NCBI GenBank assembly: GCA_025353905.1
Contig: JANXNW010000195.1
Coordinates: 1-40,866 of the forward strand
DNA from: Hymenobacter sp.
Lineage (GTDB): Bacteria > Bacteroidota > Bacteroidia > Cytophagales > Hymenobacteraceae
DNA length: 40,866 bases
Direction: 5' to 3'
The notes below the pieces were generated by a model. It did no database searches and was not told where the DNA came from. It saw nothing but the letters and a program-made list of their open reading frames with translations. Shown here one piece after another: positions 2,255 through 39,589 of this stretch (the first letter of the stretch is position 1; the number at the start of each line of letters is the position of its first letter). Made by a program: the position numbers and the translations under genes.

Positions 2255-4160
2255 GCTCGTGCAGTCGCTGGGCGATGTTCCAGCGCAGGGCCAGCGAGGG
2301 GAAAACCTCGGTGCCCGACACGGTGCCGTAGTAGGTAGGCTGGTCGAGCTGCTGGCGGCGCACGACGAGGCTCGCATCGAGAAACACGTTCAGGCGGGGC
2401 TGGTAGGTGGCGGTCAGGTCGAGGTGCAGCACCCGGCTTTTGTTGCCCTGGCCGGTGCGGTTGTCGTAGAGCTGCGGGGCGGTGGAGTAGGGAAAAAGCG
2501 GGTTGCCGCCCTGATTGACGATGCTACCGTCCGGGGCCACCGGGTCGAGGCCCTGCACCCAGTAGAACGCCTTGCCCACCAGGTTCAGGCGCGGGGCGGG
2601 CTGGTAGCTGAGAATGGCCAGCACTTCGGTGAAGTTGGCCCCCAGCGGGTGGGCCAGCGGCTGCTGGTAGTTGGTGTAGCTGCGGTAGAGGGCGTAGGGG
2701 GCCACGGCCTGGTAGGTGTAGGGCCGCACGTAGTTGGTTTCGACCTGCAAATCGAGGTTGCGCACCCCGCCTACGTCGAGCAGCTTGGCCCCGAGCTGTA
2801 AGCCCTGCTTGTTGCCATACCAGCCGGTGGCCTGCAAGATGTCCTGAATGCGAAACTCATTGATAATGAGCTGACCATAGACCTGCGCCCGGTGGGCGAT
2901 GTTCCAGCGGAAATCGGCCCCGAGCAGGGCCTTGTCGGCCGAGCCAACCTGCTGCTCGATGGCTTTGTAGAAGATAATCGGGTTCAGGTACTGCAATTCC
3001 AGCCCCCGCCCCGGCCCGCCCTGCATGATGGACTCGAACACGCCGAGGTTGAACGTCGGTGTAATATCGAAGCTGAGGTGGTGAAGGGCCAGGTATTTTT
3101 TGGGGTAGAGCTGGTCGGCGTTTTTCTTCTGGGCAATCAGCTCGGCGAAAATCGTCTGGTAGTTGAATTTCCAGACCCGCACGTTGAGCTTGAGGAAGAA
3201 ATACGGGTTGCTGTAGTCGGAGAGGATGAGCGAGCGGTAGCCGTTACCGATGGTGTTGCGGTCGTGGGCGAGCTGCACGAAAATATGCTTGGTGGCGGCG
3301 TAGGTGAGGCCCCCGCGCACGTTGAAAAAGTCGTAGGAGCTGCCGCCCTGCGTCTTGTAGTATTTCCAGTAGCCCTCGTGGGCCACCACTGTGTCGCGCA
3401 CGGTGCGCTGCTGCACCCAGCCCGGCACGGCTATTTGGTTGTCCGTCCAGGTGCCATAAAAGCCCAGGCGCTGGTCCACCAGTCCCTCGAACGCGATGCC
3501 GCGGGTATTGACGTAGCGCAGGCCCGGCAAGGCCCCGTCGCCGCGGTCGGCCCCCACTTGCAGCAGGGCCACGGGGCTGATGCGGAAGGCCAGCCCGTCG
3601 CTCTTAACTGAATAAAAATCGGTCTGCTTGCGAAAAAAAGCCTTCAGCAGCGGCTGGCGGCTTTGATTGAGGCTGTCGCCGGTGGGCGAAAACAGCCAGT
3701 TGTCCTTGACCAGATACTCGGCGTTGAAGCGGTCCACGGGGCTGAGCGCGCCGCCATCGCCGAGTATTTGTTCGCCGAGGTGGGCCGCCGCCGCGCGCGG
3801 GTAGGGCCGGACGCTGGGGTGCGGCAGCCGCGCCGAATCGGTGCCGTACTTAATGGCGTAGCGGTCGAGCAGCCGGTACGTGTTCGGGTCGAGCGGCACG
3901 AAAAGCGGAGCCTGATAAACGGCCGAAGCCGGAGCCGCGCCGAGCCGCTCGGACGGACGTCGCACGGGGCGCACGGCCAGCACCGGCTTGGTCGGGGCCA
4001 GTCGGTTAGCAGTCGAGTCGGCGGACAGCTTATCGTTGAAAATGTACCAGTTAGCGCCCGAAGTGGGCGTGGCGGCCGGAATCGCGGCCGGAGTCGTCGG
4101 CGTTTGGGCCGCGAGCGGGCCGGCCAGCGCGAGCGTCAAAAAGAGGAGGGAGTAGTTCAT
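2250..4160 (-). CDS. Outer-membrane protein, RemB/Wzi capsule-assembly-like
   Basis: A 636-residue protein with a clear Sec signal peptide starting MNYSLLFLTLALAG and a probable cleavage after LAAQ. The rest is rich in alternating aromatic strands, as in outer-membrane beta barrels, and contains stretches such as GLELQYLNPIIFYKAIEQQ and LLGADFRWNIAHRAQVYGQ that resemble the Bacteroidota capsule-assembly Wzi / gliding-motility RemB family. RemB in Flavobacterium is linked to surface gliding, and Wzi to attaching capsule to the outer membrane; which applies here is unknown. The reading frame stays open 62 codons further upstream, but that part crosses REP-like repeats and lacks signal-peptide character, so the start at 4160 is preferred. 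The TAA stop is part of the inverted 57-bp repeat. Confidence 0.65.
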   Translation of the reverse strand: MNYSLLFLTLALAGPLAAQTPTTPAAIPAATPTSGANWYIFNDKLSADSTANRLAPTKPVLAVRPVRRPSERLGAAPASAVYQAPLFVPLDPNTYRLLDRYAIKYGTDSARLPHPSVRPYPRAAAAHLGEQILGDGGALSPVDRFNAEYLVKDNWLFSPTGDSLNQSRQPLLKAFFRKQTDFYSVKSDGLAFRISPVALLQVGADRGDGALPGLRYVNTRGIAFEGLVDQRLGFYGTWTDNQIAVPGWVQQRTVRDTVVAHEGYWKYYKTQGGSSYDFFNVRGGLTYAATKHIFVQLAHDRNTIGNGYRSLILSDYSNPYFFLKLNVRVWKFNYQTIFAELIAQKKNADQLYPKKYLALHHLSFDITPTFNLGVFESIMQGGPGRGLELQYLNPIIFYKAIEQQVGSADKALLGADFRWNIAHRAQVYGQLIINEFRIQDILQATGWYGNKQGLQLGAKLLDVGGVRNLDLQVETNYVRPYTYQAVAPYALYRSYTNYQQPLAHPLGANFTEVLAILSYQPAPRLNLVGKAFYWVQGLDPVAPDGSIVNQGGNPLFPYSTAPQLYDNRTGQGNKSRVLHLDLTATYQPRLNVFLDASLVVRRQQLDQPTYYGTVSGTEVFPSLALRWNIAQRLHEL

Positions 4161-4207: not shown

Positions 4208-4350
4208 GGGCACAAGTGGGACGCAGCCTTCGCTGCGTCGGGCGCACGGGGCGGCCGTTGGGCACAAGTAGAACGCAGTCTTTGCTGCGTTGCGCGCGGA
4301 CTGGCCGCCTCGTCCCGCGCGTAACGCAGCAAAGGCTGCGTTCCACCTAC
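4208..4350. repeat. REP cluster, family A (three hairpins, GTAG-type heads)
   Basis: Three REP-like hairpins lie between divergent genes. One at 4216-4239 (+) has head GTGG, stem GACGCAGC, loop CTTC and stem GCTGCGTC. One at 4268-4291 (+) has head GTAG, stem AACGCAGT, loop CTTT and stem GCTGCGTT. One at 4323-4350 (-) reads AACGCAGC, CTTT, GCTGCGTT with GTGG directly before the stem and GTAG four bases further out. The second and third face each other. The first two also lie in a roughly 52-bp direct repeat that starts GGGCACAAGT at 4208 and 4260. Confidence 0.85.
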
Positions 4351-4363
4351 GACCTTCGCGGCC

Positions 4364-5311
4364 GTGCTTCAGCTGCTGCCTTTCTCTGCCCTCGACCTGG
4401 CCCGCTGGGATGCCTGCGTGGCGGCCAGCCCCGGTGCGCCGCCCGGCTCGCAGGCGTGGTGGCTGCAAGCCACGGCCAGCCGCTGGAATGCCGTGGTCGA
4501 AGTTGGACCGGCCGGCGAGTACTGCTCGCTGCTGCCGCTGCCCACCCGCTGGCGGCCAGCGGGCCGGGTTGTGTACCAGCCGCACTTCACCCAGCAGCTG
4601 GGCTTGGTGCTGACCGCAGCCAGCCAGCACCGCGAGCTGGCCCCGTACCTGGCCCTGGCGGCGCGGCACTGCGCCGGCTTCTACCAGCAGCTCGCGCCCG
4701 AAGCCTCGCCGCTGCCCGCGCTGCCGCCCGGCTTCATGGCCACCGAGCGCCGCACCTATCACCTCGATTTGAGCCCGCCGGTGGAGGTCCTGCGCCGGGC
4801 ATATGCCGCCGACCACCGCCGCCGCCTGCGCCGCAACGACGAACTGCCCGCGCCGCTGGTCGTGGCCGAAAGCGAGGATTTGGAGGAGTTGATTCAGCTT
4901 CTCCTGACTTATCGCGGGGCGGCGCACACCGGACTGCGGCTGCGTCACTACGACGCGCTGCGGCGGCTCTACGCCGCGGCCCAGGCGCGCGGGCTGGCCG
5001 AGCTGCGGCAGGTGCGCTGCCCGGCCACGGGCGCGCTGCTGGCCGGGGCTTTGTTCGTGCGGCACCGGGGCGGGCTGGTTTACTTGTTCGCGGCGGCTTC
5101 GCCCGAGGGAAGGACAGCTTCCGCGCCGCTGCTGATGCTCGACGAGGCCATCGGCCGCCACGCCGGGCAGCCGGGCCTCGTGCTCGACTTTGAGGGGGGC
5201 AGTCAGCCGGTCATTGGGCGTTTCTTCGCCAACTTCGGGGCGCGGCCCGTGGCCTACCCCGCGCTCAGCTTCACCCCAACGCCCTGGTTTTTAAGATGGA
5301 TGCGCCCTTAG
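4364..5311 (+). CDS. FemAB/GNAT-like acyltransferase
   Basis: A 315-residue soluble protein that starts with GTG. The C-terminal half looks like the acyl-CoA N-acyltransferase fold of the FemAB / BioF2-like group: a basic YAADHRRRLRRND stretch, then GALLAGALFVRHRGGLVYLF, and the typical ending LDFEGGSQPVIGRFFANFGA, where a conserved DFEGS-type loop precedes a substrate-binding helix. Related proteins transfer acyl or aminoacyl groups in cell-envelope or exopolysaccharide synthesis; the substrate here is unknown. A REP hairpin ends 14 bases before the start codon. The 3' end overlaps the upp start by 16 bases, so the two genes are probably co-transcribed and translationally coupled. Confidence 0.7.
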   Translation: MLQLLPFSALDLARWDACVAASPGAPPGSQAWWLQATASRWNAVVEVGPAGEYCSLLPLPTRWRPAGRVVYQPHFTQQLGLVLTAASQHRELAPYLALAARHCAGFYQQLAPEASPLPALPPGFMATERRTYHLDLSPPVEVLRRAYAADHRRRLRRNDELPAPLVVAESEDLEELIQLLLTYRGAAHTGLRLRHYDALRRLYAAAQARGLAELRQVRCPATGALLAGALFVRHRGGLVYLFAAASPEGRTASAPLLMLDEAIGRHAGQPGLVLDFEGGSQPVIGRFFANFGARPVAYPALSFTPTPWFLRWMRP

Positions 5312-12773: not shown

Positions 12774-13817
12774 ATGACCAAAGCCTATGCTGCCCCGGCC
12801 GCCCACGCGCCGCTGGCCCCGTTCGAGCTGACGCGCCGCGCGCCCGGCCCGCACGACGTGCGAATCGAGATTATGTACTGCGGCGTCTGTCACTCCGACC
12901 TGCATCAGGTGCGCGACGAGTGGGGCGGCTCGATTTTCCCGATGGTGCCGGGTCACGAAATCGTGGGTCGCGTGTCGGCCGTGGGTGCCGAGGTGAGCCA
13001 GTTTCGGGTGGGCGAGCTGGCCGGCGTGGGCTGCATGGTAGACTCGTGCCGCACCTGCCCCAGCTGCCAGGACGGCCTGGAGCAATACTGCGAAACGACC
13101 GGCTTCGTGGGCACCTACAACGCCCGCGAAATCGGCACCGGACAGCCCACGTACGGCGGCTATTCGCAGCAAATCGTGGTTGATGAAAAGTATACCCTGC
13201 GCGTGAGCGACAAGCTCGACCCGGCCCGCGTCGCGCCCTTGCTCTGTGCGGGCATCACCACCTGGTCGCCGCTGCGCGAGTGGAAAGTAGGCGCGGGGCA
13301 CCGCGTGGGCGTAATGGGCCTGGGCGGACTGGGCCACATGGGCGTCAAGCTGGCCGTCGCCCTGGGTGCCGAAGTAACCGTGCTCAGCACTTCGCCCGGC
13401 AAGGAAGCCGATGCCAAGGCCCTGGGTGCCCACAAGTTCGTGGTGACCAAGGACGCGGAGCAGCTCAAGGCGGTGAACGGCTATTTCGACTTTATTCTCA
13501 ATACCGTTTCGGCTCCGCTCGACCTGGCCAGCTACCTGAACCTGCTGCGCCGCGACGGCACGATGATACTGCTCGGCGTACCGCCCGAAGCGCCTCAGGT
13601 CCACGCTTTCAACCTGATTGGTCGCCGTCGCCGCATTGCCGGCTCGCTCATCGGCGGCATCGCCGAAACGCAGGAAATGCTCGACTTCTGTGCCGAGCAT
13701 AACATCATGTCCGACATCGAGCTGATTAATGTGCAGGACATCGACGCGGCCTACGAGCGAATGCTGAAGGGCGACGTGAAGTACCGTTTCGTGATTGACG
13801 TGGCCTCGCTGGGGTAG
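12774..13817 (+). CDS. Zinc-dependent NAD(P) alcohol dehydrogenase (CAD/YahK type)
   Basis: A 347-residue medium-chain dehydrogenase that interconverts alcohols and aldehydes with NADP(H). The catalytic zinc site shows C36 in CGVCHSDLH and H61-E62 in PGHE; the structural zinc site has C92, C95, C98 and C106. The Rossmann fold carries GLGGLGHMG. The order and the motifs CGVCHSD and ATKFVVT-like HKFVVTKD place it with cinnamyl-alcohol or YahK-type aldehyde reductases rather than class III enzymes. The stop TAG is also the TAG of the GTAG head of the first REP hairpin in a downstream cluster, so the REP begins inside the gene's last codons. Confidence 0.92.
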   Translation: MTKAYAAPAAHAPLAPFELTRRAPGPHDVRIEIMYCGVCHSDLHQVRDEWGGSIFPMVPGHEIVGRVSAVGAEVSQFRVGELAGVGCMVDSCRTCPSCQDGLEQYCETTGFVGTYNAREIGTGQPTYGGYSQQIVVDEKYTLRVSDKLDPARVAPLLCAGITTWSPLREWKVGAGHRVGVMGLGGLGHMGVKLAVALGAEVTVLSTSPGKEADAKALGAHKFVVTKDAEQLKAVNGYFDFILNTVSAPLDLASYLNLLRRDGTMILLGVPPEAPQVHAFNLIGRRRRIAGSLIGGIAETQEMLDFCAEHNIMSDIELINVQDIDAAYERMLKGDVKYRFVIDVASLG

Positions 13818-13931
13818 CGCGCAGCCTTCGCTGCGTCAAGCAATGCAGGACGCAGCGAAGGCTGCGTCAAGCCAAGTAGGACGCATTTGCTGCGTCAAGC
13901 AATGCAGGACGCAGCGAAGGCTGCGTCCTAC
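13814..13931. repeat. REP cluster, family A (four hairpins)
   Basis: Four hairpins of the GACGCAGC family fill the gap between two convergent genes. One at 13814-13837 (+) has a GTAG head whose TAG is the dehydrogenase stop. A second at 13849-13868 has loop GAAG (minus orientation). A third at 13876-13896 (+) has a GTAG head and a shortened left stem. A fourth at 13908-13931 (-) has a GTAG head that directly abuts the TAG stop of the M28 peptidase gene. The 39 bases at 13830-13868 and 13889-13927 are identical, so the pair has been duplicated with a 59-bp period. Confidence 0.92.
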
Positions 13932-16301
13932 CTAAAACCGAAAGTCGCGCTGCACCTGGGTGGTGGAGCTGTTGTAGCCAGGCGAGGGGACGAAAGTGGC
14001 CGGCAGTGGCGACAGCCCCGCCCCGGTAGGCAGCCCAAGACTGCGGCTGGTGAGCGTCATCGTCAGCGGGCCGCCCGCGGCGGGCAGCGTCAGAGCCAGG
14101 ACCTCGCCGGCGGGGCGGGGCGCAAAAAATACCAGGTTCAGGTCCGCATTGGCGGGGCGGCGGCCATCCGCGCCGGTTTTGGTGTCGGCCGGAGTGAGGG
14201 GTGCGGGCTGGCCGCTCAGGCTCAGGGCCAGCGGGTGGGGGCCGCTTAGGGTCAGGGTGAGGCTATTGACGGCGGGCCGGCTGCCGCGCAGCAGCAGGCG
14301 CAGGTAGCGCTGGCCCCGGGCGAGGCTGTCGGTGAGCACCGTAGCTTCGGGCGCGGGCAGGGGCAGCAACGGGGCGCTTTGGTGCAGGGCCGAGCCGTTG
14401 AACGGGGCCAGGGCCGGCACCGAGTCGTAGCGCGGGGCGGTGAGGATGCGGGCCGTCCAGGCATCGGGGCGCGGGGCGGCGCTCACCCAGTCGGCGCAGT
14501 GGCGGCTGGCGTTGAGCACGTAAAACAAGTGCGTTTGCTGGGGTTGGTCGGCGGTGGGCTGGCGGCTGAGGTGGCCCCAGACCAGGGCCCCGGCCATCCC
14601 CAAAAAAGCCAGGATGGGCAGCGCCAGGCTGGTTTCGGGGCGTTGGCTGGGGCCGGTAGGCACCCGCACGACCAACCCGAGCAGCGGCAGCAGCAGGCCC
14701 AGCAGCACGGTCAGCAGCAGGCTGGCAGACAGGGACAAGCTGCTCAGGCCAAACGTTGTCAGCAGCAAGGAGATGACCGGGGCCAGCAGCGCCACGGCGG
14801 GTAGCAGCAAGCCGCTGGTCGGGCCTAGTTCGCCCGCGTGGCCAACAGACGCGCGGACCACCAGCCCGCTCGCCCGGCGCAGCCGCAGCAGCCAGGCCAG
14901 CGTGGCGGCCAGCAGCGGCCAGGCCAGCAAAAACGCCGCCGAGCTGGCCTGCCACTGCAGCAGCCCCAGCAGCGCGGCACTCATCACCAGTGCCCCGCCC
15001 ACCAGCGCGTCGGGCCGCGCGCGGCGGCCCACCCAGCCGTAAAACCCCGTGAACGTGCCCATACTCAGTGCCAGCAAAGCCACCTGGTAGGCCGCCGCGT
15101 TGTACGACTCGCGGTCGTAAAACGCGCCGTACTGCGGATAGGCCCAGGCCACGGCGCTCAGCAGGCCCCAGCCCAGGGCCAGCACCAGCAGCAGCGCCCC
15201 GAGCCAGGCCCCCATGCCGCCCAGCAGGCCGGTCCAGCTCAGGCGGCCGCGCTGCCGGGCCAGGGCCAGCGTGAGCAGCAATAGGCTGAGGGTGAAGCCG
15301 GTAATCGGCAGCCCCCAGGTGGCGGGGTAGCGCACGAGCCAGCCGCCGAGCGGGTTGAAAAAAGTGGAGTCGGGCGCTTTGGTCTGAGCCAGCGAGATGG
15401 TGCCGAAGTGCCGCGTCAGGGCCAGCAGATACGCGCCGTGGTGCTGCACCGTAGCCGGGTCGAGGTGGGCGGGCGTGTCGGCCGGGCTGTGGTAGTAGGG
15501 GTAGCCGCCCACGAAAGCGAAGTTGAGCCCCGTGAGCCCGGCCTGGCGCAAGGGCGTGAAATCGGTGTCGTTGGGCAGGTGCCGGTAAGCTTCGTAAAAC
15601 AAGGACGAGGCCAACGGCGAGGGCGCGGCCTGGGCCAGCTGCTCAATCACCCAGCCGTTGCGCCCGCTCACCTCGAACATGAGCACTGGCCCCCGGTTGC
15701 CGCGCCCCTCGAAGTTGAGCACCACGCCCACCTCGCGCCGCAGGCGGGCCGTGTCGGCGGCGTAGGCCCTCGCTCCGAGCAGGCCCGCTTCCTCGCCATC
15801 GGTGAAGAGCCAGATAACGTCGTGGGCGAGCGGCGGCCCCGCCTTCAGCGCCCGGATGGTTTCGAGCATCGCCGCCACGCCGGCCCCGTCGTCGCCCGCG
15901 CCGGGCGCGTGGGGCTGCGAGTCGTAGTGAGCCAGCACGAGCACGGCTGGGCCGCCGGGCGCGCGGCCGGGCAGCCGGGCCAGCACGTTCTGCACCCGCC
16001 CCGCCTGAATGAATTGCCCGAAGCCGCCCACGCCCACGGCTTCCTGCACCCGCACCTCGGCCAGGCCCAGCGCCCGCAGCCGGCGCAGCAGGTACTCGCG
16101 CACGGCCACGTTGGCCGGCGTACCGATGGAATGCGGCTCGCGGGCGATGATGGCCACGTCGGCCAGCGCCCGGCCGGCCGCAAACTCGGTGGCCGGGGCC
16201 GTCACCGGCAGCGGCGCGGGCGGGCGCATCAGCCCGATGGCCAGCCCGGCAAACAGCCCCAGCCCGAGCAGCGGCAACCAACGAAAAAACACGGATGTCA
16301 T
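13932..16301 (-). CDS. Membrane-anchored M28-family zinc aminopeptidase
   Basis: A 789-residue protein with an N-terminal membrane anchor (WLPLLGLGLFAGLAIGLM), an M28 peptidase domain in the periplasm, and a C-terminal half with about eight membrane helices, then a final soluble part. Zinc and catalytic residues fit the family: H125 in LAHYDSQP, D137 in AGDDGAG, E170-E171 in FTDGEEAG, E198 in NFEGRGNRG and H271 in YYHSPADT. This architecture resembles ER aminopeptidase/Fxna-like proteins; in bacteria the substrate is likely short peptides in the periplasm, which is an inference. The start at 16301 gives a good signal anchor; the frame is open 14 codons further. The TAG stop lies directly against a REP head. 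Confidence 0.9.
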   Translation of the reverse strand: MTSVFFRWLPLLGLGLFAGLAIGLMRPPAPLPVTAPATEFAAGRALADVAIIAREPHSIGTPANVAVREYLLRRLRALGLAEVRVQEAVGVGGFGQFIQAGRVQNVLARLPGRAPGGPAVLVLAHYDSQPHAPGAGDDGAGVAAMLETIRALKAGPPLAHDVIWLFTDGEEAGLLGARAYAADTARLRREVGVVLNFEGRGNRGPVLMFEVSGRNGWVIEQLAQAAPSPLASSLFYEAYRHLPNDTDFTPLRQAGLTGLNFAFVGGYPYYHSPADTPAHLDPATVQHHGAYLLALTRHFGTISLAQTKAPDSTFFNPLGGWLVRYPATWGLPITGFTLSLLLLTLALARQRGRLSWTGLLGGMGAWLGALLLVLALGWGLLSAVAWAYPQYGAFYDRESYNAAAYQVALLALSMGTFTGFYGWVGRRARPDALVGGALVMSAALLGLLQWQASSAAFLLAWPLLAATLAWLLRLRRASGLVVRASVGHAGELGPTSGLLLPAVALLAPVISLLLTTFGLSSLSLSASLLLTVLLGLLLPLLGLVVRVPTGPSQRPETSLALPILAFLGMAGALVWGHLSRQPTADQPQQTHLFYVLNASRHCADWVSAAPRPDAWTARILTAPRYDSVPALAPFNGSALHQSAPLLPLPAPEATVLTDSLARGQRYLRLLLRGSRPAVNSLTLTLSGPHPLALSLSGQPAPLTPADTKTGADGRRPANADLNLVFFAPRPAGEVLALTLPAAGGPLTMTLTSRSLGLPTGAGLSPLPATFVPSPGYNSSTTQVQRDFRF

Positions 16302-37920: not shown

Positions 37921-39009
37921 GTGTCTGAGCCTGTCAAAAAGTCCACCCTGGAAGAGCGCCGCGCGCTGTCTACCCGCCGCCGCAACCGCTACGCCACCGT
38001 GGCCGTGGTGCTGGGCCTGGGCCTGGTCTGCTTCTCGTATTATTTCTACCAGATTTTTTTCACCGCCAACATCGACACCAAGAGCCGCCCGACCTACGTG
38101 TACGTGCGCCGGGGCTACAACTGGCAGCGAGCGCTGAAAGAAGTCGAGAACACCGATGCCGTCATCGACCGGCTTTCGCTCTTTTTCGTGGGCCGGCTCA
38201 TGGGCTACGACAAGCCGGGGGCCGTGAAGCCCGGCCGCTACGAGCTGCCCGACCAGGGCAGCAACCGCGACCTCATTAACCTGCTCAAGTCGGGCCGGCA
38301 GTCGCCGCTGCGGCTCACCTTCACCAACGTGCGCCTGCGCCGCGAACTGGCCCTCAAGCTCAGTAAGCAAATCGACGCCCGCCCCCGGCAGATAGATTCG
38401 CTGCTCAGCTCGCCTGATTACACCCGCAGCCTGGGCTTCGACACGACGACCGTGCTGGCCATGTTCATCCCCAACACCTACGAGCTGTACTGGAACACGA
38501 CGCCGCAGAACCTGATGCAGCGCATGAAAACCGAGTACGAAAAATTCTGGACGCCCGCCCGCGACGAAGCCAGGCAGTCGCGCGGCCTCACGCGGCTGCA
38601 AGTCAGCACCTTGGCCAGCATCGTGGAGGCCGAGCAGCAGCAGCACGCCGACGAGCGCCCCCGCATCGCGGGCGTGTACCTGAACCGCCTCAAACGCGGC
38701 ATGAAGCTGCAAGCCGACCCCACGGTGGTGTACGCCAACGGCGATTTCGGCATCAAGCGCGTGCTGAACGTGCATTTGCGCAAAGACTCGCCCTACAACA
38801 CGTACCTATACGCCGGCCTGCCGCCCGGCCCCATCAACCTGCCCAGCATCGCCAGCCTCAACGCCGTGCTCCACCCCGAAGAAAACAGCTATTTGTTTTT
38901 CTGCGCCAAAGAAGATTTCAGCGGCTACCACGCTTTTGCCGCCAACGAGCAGCAGCACCTGGTGAACGCGCGGCGCTATCAGGCGGCGCTGAACCGGAAT
39001 GGGATGTAG
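37921..39009 (+). CDS. mltG: Endolytic murein transglycosylase MltG
   Basis: A 362-residue inner-membrane protein that cuts newly made glycan strands and so ends peptidoglycan polymerisation. One N-terminal membrane helix (ATVAVVLGLGLVCFSYYFY), a LysM-like subdomain around residues 55-130 and the YceG catalytic domain are visible. The catalytic glutamate is E236 in LASIVEAE, followed by RPRIAGVYLNRLKRGMKLQA and the conserved YNTYLYAGLPPGPI and FCAKEDFSGYHAFA. GTG start. The stop TAG is part of the GTAG head of a REP element. Confidence 0.94.
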   Translation: MSEPVKKSTLEERRALSTRRRNRYATVAVVLGLGLVCFSYYFYQIFFTANIDTKSRPTYVYVRRGYNWQRALKEVENTDAVIDRLSLFFVGRLMGYDKPGAVKPGRYELPDQGSNRDLINLLKSGRQSPLRLTFTNVRLRRELALKLSKQIDARPRQIDSLLSSPDYTRSLGFDTTTVLAMFIPNTYELYWNTTPQNLMQRMKTEYEKFWTPARDEARQSRGLTRLQVSTLASIVEAEQQQHADERPRIAGVYLNRLKRGMKLQADPTVVYANGDFGIKRVLNVHLRKDSPYNTYLYAGLPPGPINLPSIASLNAVLHPEENSYLFFCAKEDFSGYHAFAANEQQHLVNARRYQAALNRNGM

Positions 39010-39097
39010 AACGCAGCCTTTGCTGCGTTAATCGTCCGCGCAATTTGTATTTGCTTTAATGCCGTTCAACGATGACGCAGCGAAGGCTGCGTCCTAC
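39006..39097. repeat. REP pair, family A, across mltG stop and thioesterase start
   Basis: At 39006-39029 (+) GTAG, AACGCAGC, CTTT, GCTGCGTT; at 39074-39097 (-) GTAG, GACGCAGC, CTTC, GCTGCGTC. The first head's TAG is the mltG stop. The second hairpin is inside the first codons of the thioesterase frame. The 44-base spacer holds a TATTTG box and the ATG at 39059. Confidence 0.9.
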
Positions 39098-39589
39098 GCC
39101 ATGTACCAGGCCGACATTCAAATCCGCGTGCGCTACGCCGAAACCGACCAGATGGGCTACGTCTATCACGGCAACTACGCGGCCTATTTTGAGGTGGCGC
39201 GCACGGAGGCGTTCCGGCAGCTCGGCATTCGGTATAAAACGCTGGAGGCTGAGGGCGTGGGCATGCCGGTGGGCGAGCTGCAAACCCGCTTCCGCCGCCC
39301 GGCGCGCTACGACGACCTGCTCACTATCCGGGTGATGCTGCGCGAGGTGCCGGAAGGCTCGCGGGTGAAATTCGAGTACGAAATTCGCAACGAGGCCGAC
39401 GAGCTGCTCACCGAAGGCTACACGCTGATGGTGTTTGTGAGCACCGCCACCGGCCGGCCGGTGCCGATTCCGGGCAGCGTCCGTGAGCGGCTCGCGCCGT
39501 ACTTCGCCGCCGATGAAGACGGCAGTCCGCTAGGTCTGGTGTTGGCCGCCCCACCCGATGCGCCCGCCCCGGCGGCGTTTGGGAAGTAG
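39059..39589 (+). CDS. Acyl-CoA thioesterase, YbgC/4HBT family
   Basis: A 176-residue hotdog-fold thioesterase. The conserved core starts at MYQADIQIRVRYAETDQMGYVYHGNY, with the catalytic-type aspartate in ETDQMG, and the family's HGNYAAYFEVARTEAFRQL. The first 14 residues (MPFNDDAAKAASYA) come before the hotdog fold and are largely encoded by a REP hairpin. The internal ATG at 39101 gives the family's normal length and may be the real start; a TATTTG box before 39059 supports the longer form. Related proteins act on acyl-ACP or hydroxyacyl-CoA near the Tol-Pal system or in lipid metabolism; no tol genes are nearby. Confidence 0.9.
   Translation: MPFNDDAAKAASYAMYQADIQIRVRYAETDQMGYVYHGNYAAYFEVARTEAFRQLGIRYKTLEAEGVGMPVGELQTRFRRPARYDDLLTIRVMLREVPEGSRVKFEYEIRNEADELLTEGYTLMVFVSTATGRPVPIPGSVRERLAPYFAADEDGSPLGLVLAAPPDAPAPAAFGK

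What the first reader, a model, noticed from the sequence alone, without database searches (positions are those of the whole stretch)
13814..13934. REP heads provide or touch the stop codons of their host genes
The TAG of GTAG is the stop of the alcohol dehydrogenase gene (13815-13817) and of mltG (39007-39009). The M28 peptidase TAG stop (13932-13934, minus) directly abuts a GTAG head at 13928-13931. Three of three gene-end copies therefore sit at a stop codon to the base. A head that contains TAG would let an element insert at gene ends without destroying the protein, or end a frame it has invaded.
Basis: seen in the sequence. Interest (0 to 1): 0.7.

Follow-up and report, generated by a model that had tools for sequence, protein, structure and literature searches.

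The report
Repeat ends double as stop codons
In some Hymenobacter genomes small hairpin repeats are joined so tightly to genes that the TAG at the edge of the repeat is the gene's own stop codon, a habit already noted in print for such repeats but measured and found strong here.

Summary
The repeats are GTAG-headed REP elements, mostly paired head-out as in REPINs, in a Hymenobacter MAG. The head's TAG is the stop for 20 of 29 outermost GTAG heads facing a gene's 3' end here, 9 of 14 in H. terrenus and 5 of 24 in a third Hymenobacter. GTGG heads, which cannot stop a frame, give 0 of 17. A called frame that runs into a GTAG head meets the TAG in 34 of 35 cases, against one third expected. Among 16 stop-sharing gene ends with orthologues, protein length is unchanged in 10, one residue shorter in 3, and 3 to 17 shorter in 3. 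Heads thus usually take over at or within one codon of the native stop. The native spacer is gone too: in the home genome paired convergent REPINs fill the gap (median residue -4 nt, n=9, against 108.5, n=62). That GTAG REP termini often supply TAG stops is in print (Di Nocera 2013, PMC3733652), so this is a strong new instance of a known pattern. How REPIN ends come to lie exactly on stops is unsolved.

The parts
12774..13817 (+). zinc-type alcohol dehydrogenase gene whose stop is the REP head
   Evidence: same length as 14 of 29 orthologues, the others -1 (6), +1 (8), +2 (1)
13814..13837 (+). REP copy, head GTAG 13814-13817, TAG 13815-13817 = stop
13814..13931 (.). array of REP units filling the whole gap between the two convergent genes
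   Evidence: folds far better than shuffles, DNA z -10.4
13908..13931 (-). REP copy, head GTAG at 13931-13928, abutting a stop
13932..16277 (-). M28 peptidase gene, own TAG stop 13934-13932 touching the head
   Evidence: C-terminus at the same place as in the 5 orthologues found
37921..39009 (+). MltG/YceG gene whose stop is the REP head
   Evidence: one residue shorter than 26 of 29 orthologues, two shorter than 3
39006..39029 (+). REP copy, head GTAG 39006-39009, TAG 39007-39009 = stop
39006..39097 (.). REPIN-type pair (two REPs head-out, 92 bp) occupying nearly all of the gap between mltG and the thioesterase gene
   Evidence: RNA fold of 38990-39110 z -5.9
39074..39097 (-). REP copy whose head lies 3 nt from the next start codon
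39101..39589 (+). 4HBT/YbgC-like thioesterase gene; start conserved in relatives (the ORF list's ATG at 39059 lies inside the REPIN)
4216..4346 (.). three further REP copies (two GTGG, one GTAG) facing gene starts

Best explanation
These are REPIN-type repeats: pairs of GTAG-headed REP hairpins pointing outward, probably mobilised by a RAYT transposase. In this lineage many of their outer ends have become joined directly to the coding ends of neighbouring genes, in place of the old intergenic spacer. At a gene's 3' end the joint can come as close as the last codon, because the first four bases of the element (GTAG) complete that codon with G and then supply an in-frame TAG. Copies in another frame, or with a GTGG head, cannot do this; they are lost or stay behind the native stop. 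Shown: sharing of the stop, its frame dependence, the GTGG contrast, mostly unchanged protein lengths, and gaps with little besides REPIN. Inferred: selection as the filter, and replacement or trimming of the spacer (by RAYT-made breaks or another deletion process) as the way the ends met.
For: Stop shared by 20 of 29, 9 of 14 and 5 of 24 outermost GTAG heads in three genomes, plus one ATAG and three GTAA heads; GTGG 0 of 17; frame 34 of 35. Length unchanged in 10 of 16 gene ends and -1 in 3. In several exact cases the nearest orthologue has another last codon or stop (AAC TAA against GGG TAG; ACC TGA against ACG TAG; CAG TGA against CAG TAG), as expected if the element brought G and TAG. Residual spacer <=12 nt in 11 of 16 paired convergent REPINs against 8 of 97 REP-free convergent gaps. 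Relatives have 38-285 nt (28 with both genes) and 42-147 nt (5) at two of three tested convergent loci and 57-509 nt (27) at mltG-thioesterase. 5' sides can be tight too: 15 of 37 outermost heads facing a start in the home genome lie within 13 nt of it. H. terrenus (G025) has a RAYT-like gene with this REP on both sides; its closest homologue among 101 genus genomes is in the third REP-bearing genome (67%; next best 52%).
Against: No empty and filled pair close enough to align the spacer; loss is inferred from relatives mostly at 70-91% protein identity. At locus L081 relatives' spacers run from 7 to 555 nt, so one relative has almost none without this REP. In H. terrenus alone the convergent spacer test is not significant (3 pairs, p=0.33). 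Half or more of the paired co-directional REPINs still have >12 nt of other spacer (14 of 42 at <=12). G000 has no close copy of the cognate RAYT (best 44%), perhaps because the MAG is 82% complete. No headless hairpins were seen next to stops, which random trimming should sometimes give.
Confidence: 0.6

Rival explanations
1. Plain insertion plus selection: REPINs land anywhere near gene ends, and only copies behind the stop, or in the frame where the head's TAG ends the gene, survive. No special joining process is involved.
For: Frame rule 34 of 35 and GTGG 0 of 17; three truncations of 3 to 17 residues; G082, with 19 of 24 heads behind the stop.
Against: Ten of 16 are exact to the orthologue's length, and 29 of 43 heads in two genomes are on the stop although spacers near 100 nt offer many harmless sites. 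Does not explain REPINs abutting both neighbours.
Confidence: 0.2
2. Microhomology: a native TAG (or GTAG) stop recombines with the GTAG head, deleting the spacer between them and keeping one TAG.
For: Would preserve protein length exactly; 19-25% of REP-free gene ends are GTAG; two ATAG-headed copies at stops (era of H. terrenus; L090 minus gene).
Against: The nearest orthologue ends in TAG in only 4 of the 10 exact cases, close to the background of 136 of 355, and in TAA or TGA in the rest; ATAG and GTAA variants are also changes that leave residue or stop intact.
Confidence: 0.1
3. Targeted insertion: the RAYT prefers a site at stop codons.
For: Spike at one base position; REPs at the same gene end in two genomes (LOG gene: 17 residues early in G000, native stop in H. 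terrenus).
Against: No strong motif before GTAG heads facing starts (best: A at -2 in 26 of 55, C at -1 in 22 of 55) or at stops beyond codon bias; orthologues' native stops are of all three kinds; one-sided targeting does not remove the spacer on the other side.
Confidence: 0.08
4. Gene-calling artefact: a TAG in an open frame is counted as a gene end in a GC-rich genome.
For: Home-made caller; a few low-score genes among the shared stops.
Against: 29 of 32 scanned genes match Pfam families; many orthologues end at the same residue; strong genes alone give 16 of 25.
Confidence: 0.02

Closest known systems
GTAG-superfamily REPs (Di Nocera et al. 2013, PMC3733652; passages and section 15 read)
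   Same: GTAG tag at the end of a short palindrome, mostly intergenic, near 3' ends; the paper states that GTAG termini often provide the TAG stop to flanking ORFs and that most convergent REPs in two species lie <20 bp from both ORFs.
   Different: In the parts read there is no rate for stop sharing, no GTGG control for it and no orthologue test of stop sharing. The passage on phyla (cut at its start in my view) names Bacteroidetes for CGTC repeats, not for GTAG; this GTAG family is in Hymenobacter.
REPINs and RAYTs (Bertels and Rainey 2011, PMC3116915; Nunvar 2010, PMC2817692; passages read of both)
   Same: Two REPs in inverted orientation as a unit; RAYT gene flanked by cognate REPs.
   Different: Inner segments here vary widely apart from short recurring motifs; sharing of stops by dispersed copies is not in the passages read, although Nunvar notes REPs right behind rayt stop codons.
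E. coli K-12 REP/BIME
   Same: GTAG head and hairpin; the mutT stop is a head TAG.
   Different: 1 of 14 outermost GTAG heads facing a 3' end shares the stop in 400 kb (1 of 30 with inner heads); most lie further off, and only 4 of the 14 are within 60 nt.

Membership tests
GTAG REP element | GTAG (or GTGG) at the 5' foot of a short palindrome | tested here: met
   59 GTAG and 33 GTGG of 97 copies
GTAG REP element | many dispersed copies in one genome | tested here: met
   89 copies at <=3 mismatches
GTAG REP element | mainly outside genes | tested here: met
   of 81 outermost GTAG and GTGG heads in the home genome 79 lie outside called genes or overlap them only by the shared stop; 2 overlap a call further, one through a false start
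REPIN | two REPs inverted, moving as one unit | tested here: inconclusive
   35 head-out pairs in G000, 9 of 58-66 and 17 of 78-83 bp; movement not observed
RAYT-associated repeat | a RAYT gene flanked by the same REP | tested here: met
   H. terrenus C91 RAYT-like gene has this REP on both sides; NCBIfam REP_Tyr_transpos 75.6 bits, just under the cut-off of 80. Not found in G000
RAYT-associated repeat | mobilised by the RAYT | not testable with these tools
   no transposition data
intrinsic terminator | hairpin followed by a T run | tested here: not met
   none found at 13600-14100; other copies not scanned

The most novel reading that the evidence does not exclude
REPINs in this lineage do not merely insert beside genes: an active joining process, perhaps RAYT cleavage and strand transfer, replaces whole intergenic spacers, welding hairpin ends to stop codons and nearly to start codons and so rewriting gene boundaries across the genome.
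Probability: 0.25. Interest if true: 0.7.

Novelty: new member of a known kind. Interest (0 to 1): 0.42.

Why it matters
It turns a one-line remark in the literature into a measured effect with controls, and shows that a repeat supplies the working end of some three dozen genes in three genomes, conserved ones included (era, polyprenyl synthetase, gcvH, mltG). It exposes an open question about REP biology, how element ends meet stop codons and why the spacer disappears, that close Hymenobacter strains could answer directly. E. coli REPs nearer than 16 nt to a stop are reported to lower translation (statement in PMC12306157 citing earlier work; passage read), so hairpins that start right behind the stop may tune these genes; that is inference.

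Tried and rejected
Erosion of the spacer into the element: headless hairpins next to stops would be expected; of 78 hairpins facing a stop within 60 nt none had a head other than GTAG, GTGG or GTAA (its stem pattern misses the one ATAG copy). TAG-to-TAG microhomology: nearest orthologue TAG in 4 of 10 exact cases, so not favoured. Native spacer kept inside the REPIN: rejected provisionally because 26 of 35 pairs fall in two length classes and inner motifs recur (by eye). Intrinsic terminator: none at the ADH-M28 array. Flanking target motif: nothing strong; the GC-rich flank of G082 heads away from stops is an extension of its element. The C241 RAYT of G000 carries its own, different inverted repeat and is not the cognate one. 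Literature: Hymenobacter with 'repetitive extragenic palindrom' gave 0 papers; a broader search listed nothing closer in its 10 of 182 rows. A first comparison with the thioesterase used a wrong frame and was redone. A first E. coli count mixed in inner heads and was repeated for outermost heads. Left out of the 16-gene length tally: L140 (orthologue 55% identical), L145, L150, L166 and the other G082 genes (compared only with other REP-bearing copies or not at all), and stop-sharing genes without an orthologue among the loci held. Left out of the spacer test: unpaired clusters and those at contig ends. Copies with 4 mismatches were counted only in contigs fetched for better copies.
Full report
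WHAT WAS CLAIMED AND WHAT IS THERE. The coordinates hold. The TAG of the GTAG at 13814-13817 is the stop of a zinc-type alcohol dehydrogenase gene, and the TAG of the GTAG at 39006-39009 is the stop of mltG/yceG. The minus-strand head at 13931-13928 abuts the separate TAG stop of an M28 peptidase gene (13934-13932). Families are from Pfam. Two copies provide the stop and one touches it.

WHAT THE REPEAT IS. The unit is GTAGGACGCAGCCTTTGCTGCGTC, a GTAG head on an 8-bp hairpin. The home genome is a 4.14-Mb, 435-contig, 82% complete assembly. It has 89 copies at up to 3 mismatches. In the fetched contigs I counted 97 at up to 4 mismatches: 59 GTAG, 33 GTGG and 5 other heads. There are 35 head-out pairs, 9 of them 58-66 bp and 17 of them 78-83 bp long, which is REPIN anatomy. 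The two window arrays fold far better than shuffles. Of 101 genomes of the genus, three have exact matches to the pattern searched; diverged relatives of the repeat in the other 98 are not excluded. A scan of the named genome collection for the 24-mer found only Hymenobacter terrenus (15 stretches) and one Hymenobacter MAG, which contig lengths identify with G025 and G082; that collection may leave out the home genome.

A COGNATE TRANSPOSASE. In H. terrenus a RAYT-like gene has copies of this REP on both sides. It scores 75.6 bits on the NCBIfam RAYT model, just under the cut-off of 80. Its closest homologue among the 101 genomes is in G082 (67%); the others found at E<=1e-30 are at 52% or less, and G000's best is 44%. 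Two other RAYTs in G000 pass the NCBIfam cut-off, but the one on C241 is flanked by a different repeat.

HOW OFTEN THE HEAD IS THE STOP. I called genes with a codon-usage script and measured the offset between the head's TAG and the stop for the outermost heads of each cluster. GTAG heads facing a gene 3' end share the stop in 20 of 29 cases in G000, 9 of 14 in H. terrenus and 5 of 24 in G082. With strong gene calls only, it is 16 of 25, 7 of 11 and 4 of 22. Four more outermost heads, one ATAG and three GTAA, share a stop as well. In G000 and H. terrenus together the other 14 GTAG heads lie at -3 (5), -4 (2), -6 (2) and one each at -8, -13, -15, -19 and -24. GTGG heads share the stop in 0 of 17 (14 of them in G000; Fisher p=5e-5 over three genomes, 1e-5 in G000, not significant in the other two alone). 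When a called frame is open into a GTAG head it meets the TAG in 34 of 35 cases against 1 in 3 expected (p=1e-15). In G082 heads away from the stop carry several conserved bases before GTAG, so GTAG is often not terminal there, which fits its lower rate.

E. COLI AS A YARDSTICK. In 400 kb of E. coli K-12, 1 of 30 GTAG heads facing a 3' end shares the stop (mutT). Counting outermost heads only, as above, it is 1 of 14 (p=2e-4 against 20 of 29). But only 4 of those 14 lie within 60 nt of the stop, and 1 of 4 is too few to compare (p=0.13). E. coli heads are thus mostly further from the gene; whether close ones behave differently is open.

WHAT HAPPENED TO THE PROTEINS. Orthologues came from genus members and from comparing the three REP-bearing genomes. 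For 16 stop-sharing gene ends the length change against the nearest orthologues is zero in ten: alcohol dehydrogenase (14 of 29 orthologues equal, the rest -1 to +2), L065 plus gene (8 of 28 equal, among them the closest six; 19 are one longer), polyprenyl synthetase (29 of 29), L090 minus gene (5 of 5), era (22 of 29), and five H. terrenus genes (L129 against several relatives; L127, L130, L131 and L136 against a single G082 orthologue each). It is one residue in three: mltG, the L081 plus gene (0 to 3 by relative), and a GTAA-headed H. terrenus gene. It is larger in three: 4-13 residues of a variable acidic tail (28 of 29 orthologues longer), 3 residues (one orthologue, itself ended by another GTAG repeat), and 17 residues in a LOG-family protein (30 of 30 longer). 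The LOG gene of H. terrenus has its own REP exactly at the native stop. In several exact cases the nearest orthologue has a different last base or stop, such as AAC TAA, ACC TGA or CAG TGA, so the G and TAG most likely came with the element. The nearest orthologue ends in TAG in 4 of the 10.

THE SPACER. In G000 the non-REPIN residue of the gap at paired convergent REPINs has a median of -4 nt (9 REPINs) against 108.5 nt for REP-free convergent gaps (62); p=9e-4. The same test gives p=0.33 in H. terrenus (3 pairs) and 0.005 in G082 (4). Co-directional gaps are shorter too (medians 54, 40 and 23.5 nt against 139, 197 and 118; p=7e-5, 0.006 and 0.011). Across three genomes 11 of 16 paired convergent REPINs leave <=12 nt against 8 of 97 REP-free gaps; for co-directional pairs it is 14 of 42 against 27 of 353. 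Two GTGG-only convergent REPINs leave 199 and 469 nt. Relatives have 38-285 nt at the L065 locus (28 with both genes), 42-147 at L090 (5), 7-555 at L081 (8) and 57-509 between mltG and the thioesterase gene (27), where G000 has 91 nt, nearly all REPIN; at ADH-M28 five relatives have 642-1178 nt, perhaps with other genes, against 114. In G000 15 of 37 outermost heads facing a 5' end lie within 13 nt of the start codon (5 of 16 and 7 of 21 in the other two). Divergent gaps keep more room (no residue <=12 nt in 11 paired cases), as expected where promoters are needed.

INTERPRETATION. The head's TAG is used as a stop, and the frame rule points to selection. Selection alone does not explain why most heads in two genomes are exactly on the stop when a spacer of about 100 nt offers many harmless sites, nor why little else of the spacer is left. 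I favour joining of REPIN ends to coding ends with loss of the spacer, followed by selection; the chemistry is unproven. RAYTs are reported to cut single strands 5' and 3' of a REP, and for one RAYT (Marinomonas) GTAG was shown to guide the choice of site, while attempts with two others failed (PMC8266576, passages read), so RAYT-made adjacent deletions are a possible source. This is inference.

PRIOR ART. Di Nocera et al. 2013 (PMC3733652; [quoted passage not shown] The core observation is thus known. What I did not find in the passages read, or in the listings of searches, is a rate with a GTGG control, an orthologue test of stop sharing, or this family in Hymenobacter. I did not read those papers in full or their supplements.

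Noticed in passing
L129 REP at 5089 and L090 REP at 3101: The same LOG/lysine-decarboxylase-family gene carries a stop-sharing REP in two genomes at different places: 17 residues early in G000, at the native stop in H. terrenus.
   Followed up: partly
L302 (era of H. terrenus): A degenerate ATAG-headed REP copy lies at the stop of era, whose G000 orthologue also ends in a REP head.
   Followed up: partly
L139 and L067 13087: Related GTAG hairpins with different stems (GGCGAAGCC..., GGCGGAGCC...) also share stops, so further REP subfamilies may behave alike.
   Followed up: no
L141-L166 (G082): In G082 the element often extends beyond GTAG, and several pairs hold an inner CGAGCGCAGCGAG motif; a diverged REPIN type at some gene ends shared with H. 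terrenus.
   Followed up: partly
L063 4317-4418: Four GTGG-headed REP units in 26-nt tandem repeat.
   Followed up: no
L060 1138-1915 (G000 C241): A RAYT gene flanked by its own different inverted repeat (GTAACACCAAGCTCCAGCTTGGTG).
   Followed up: no
window 39059-39100: The ATG at 39059 given by plain ORF listing lies inside the REPIN; the conserved thioesterase start is 39101.
   Followed up: yes
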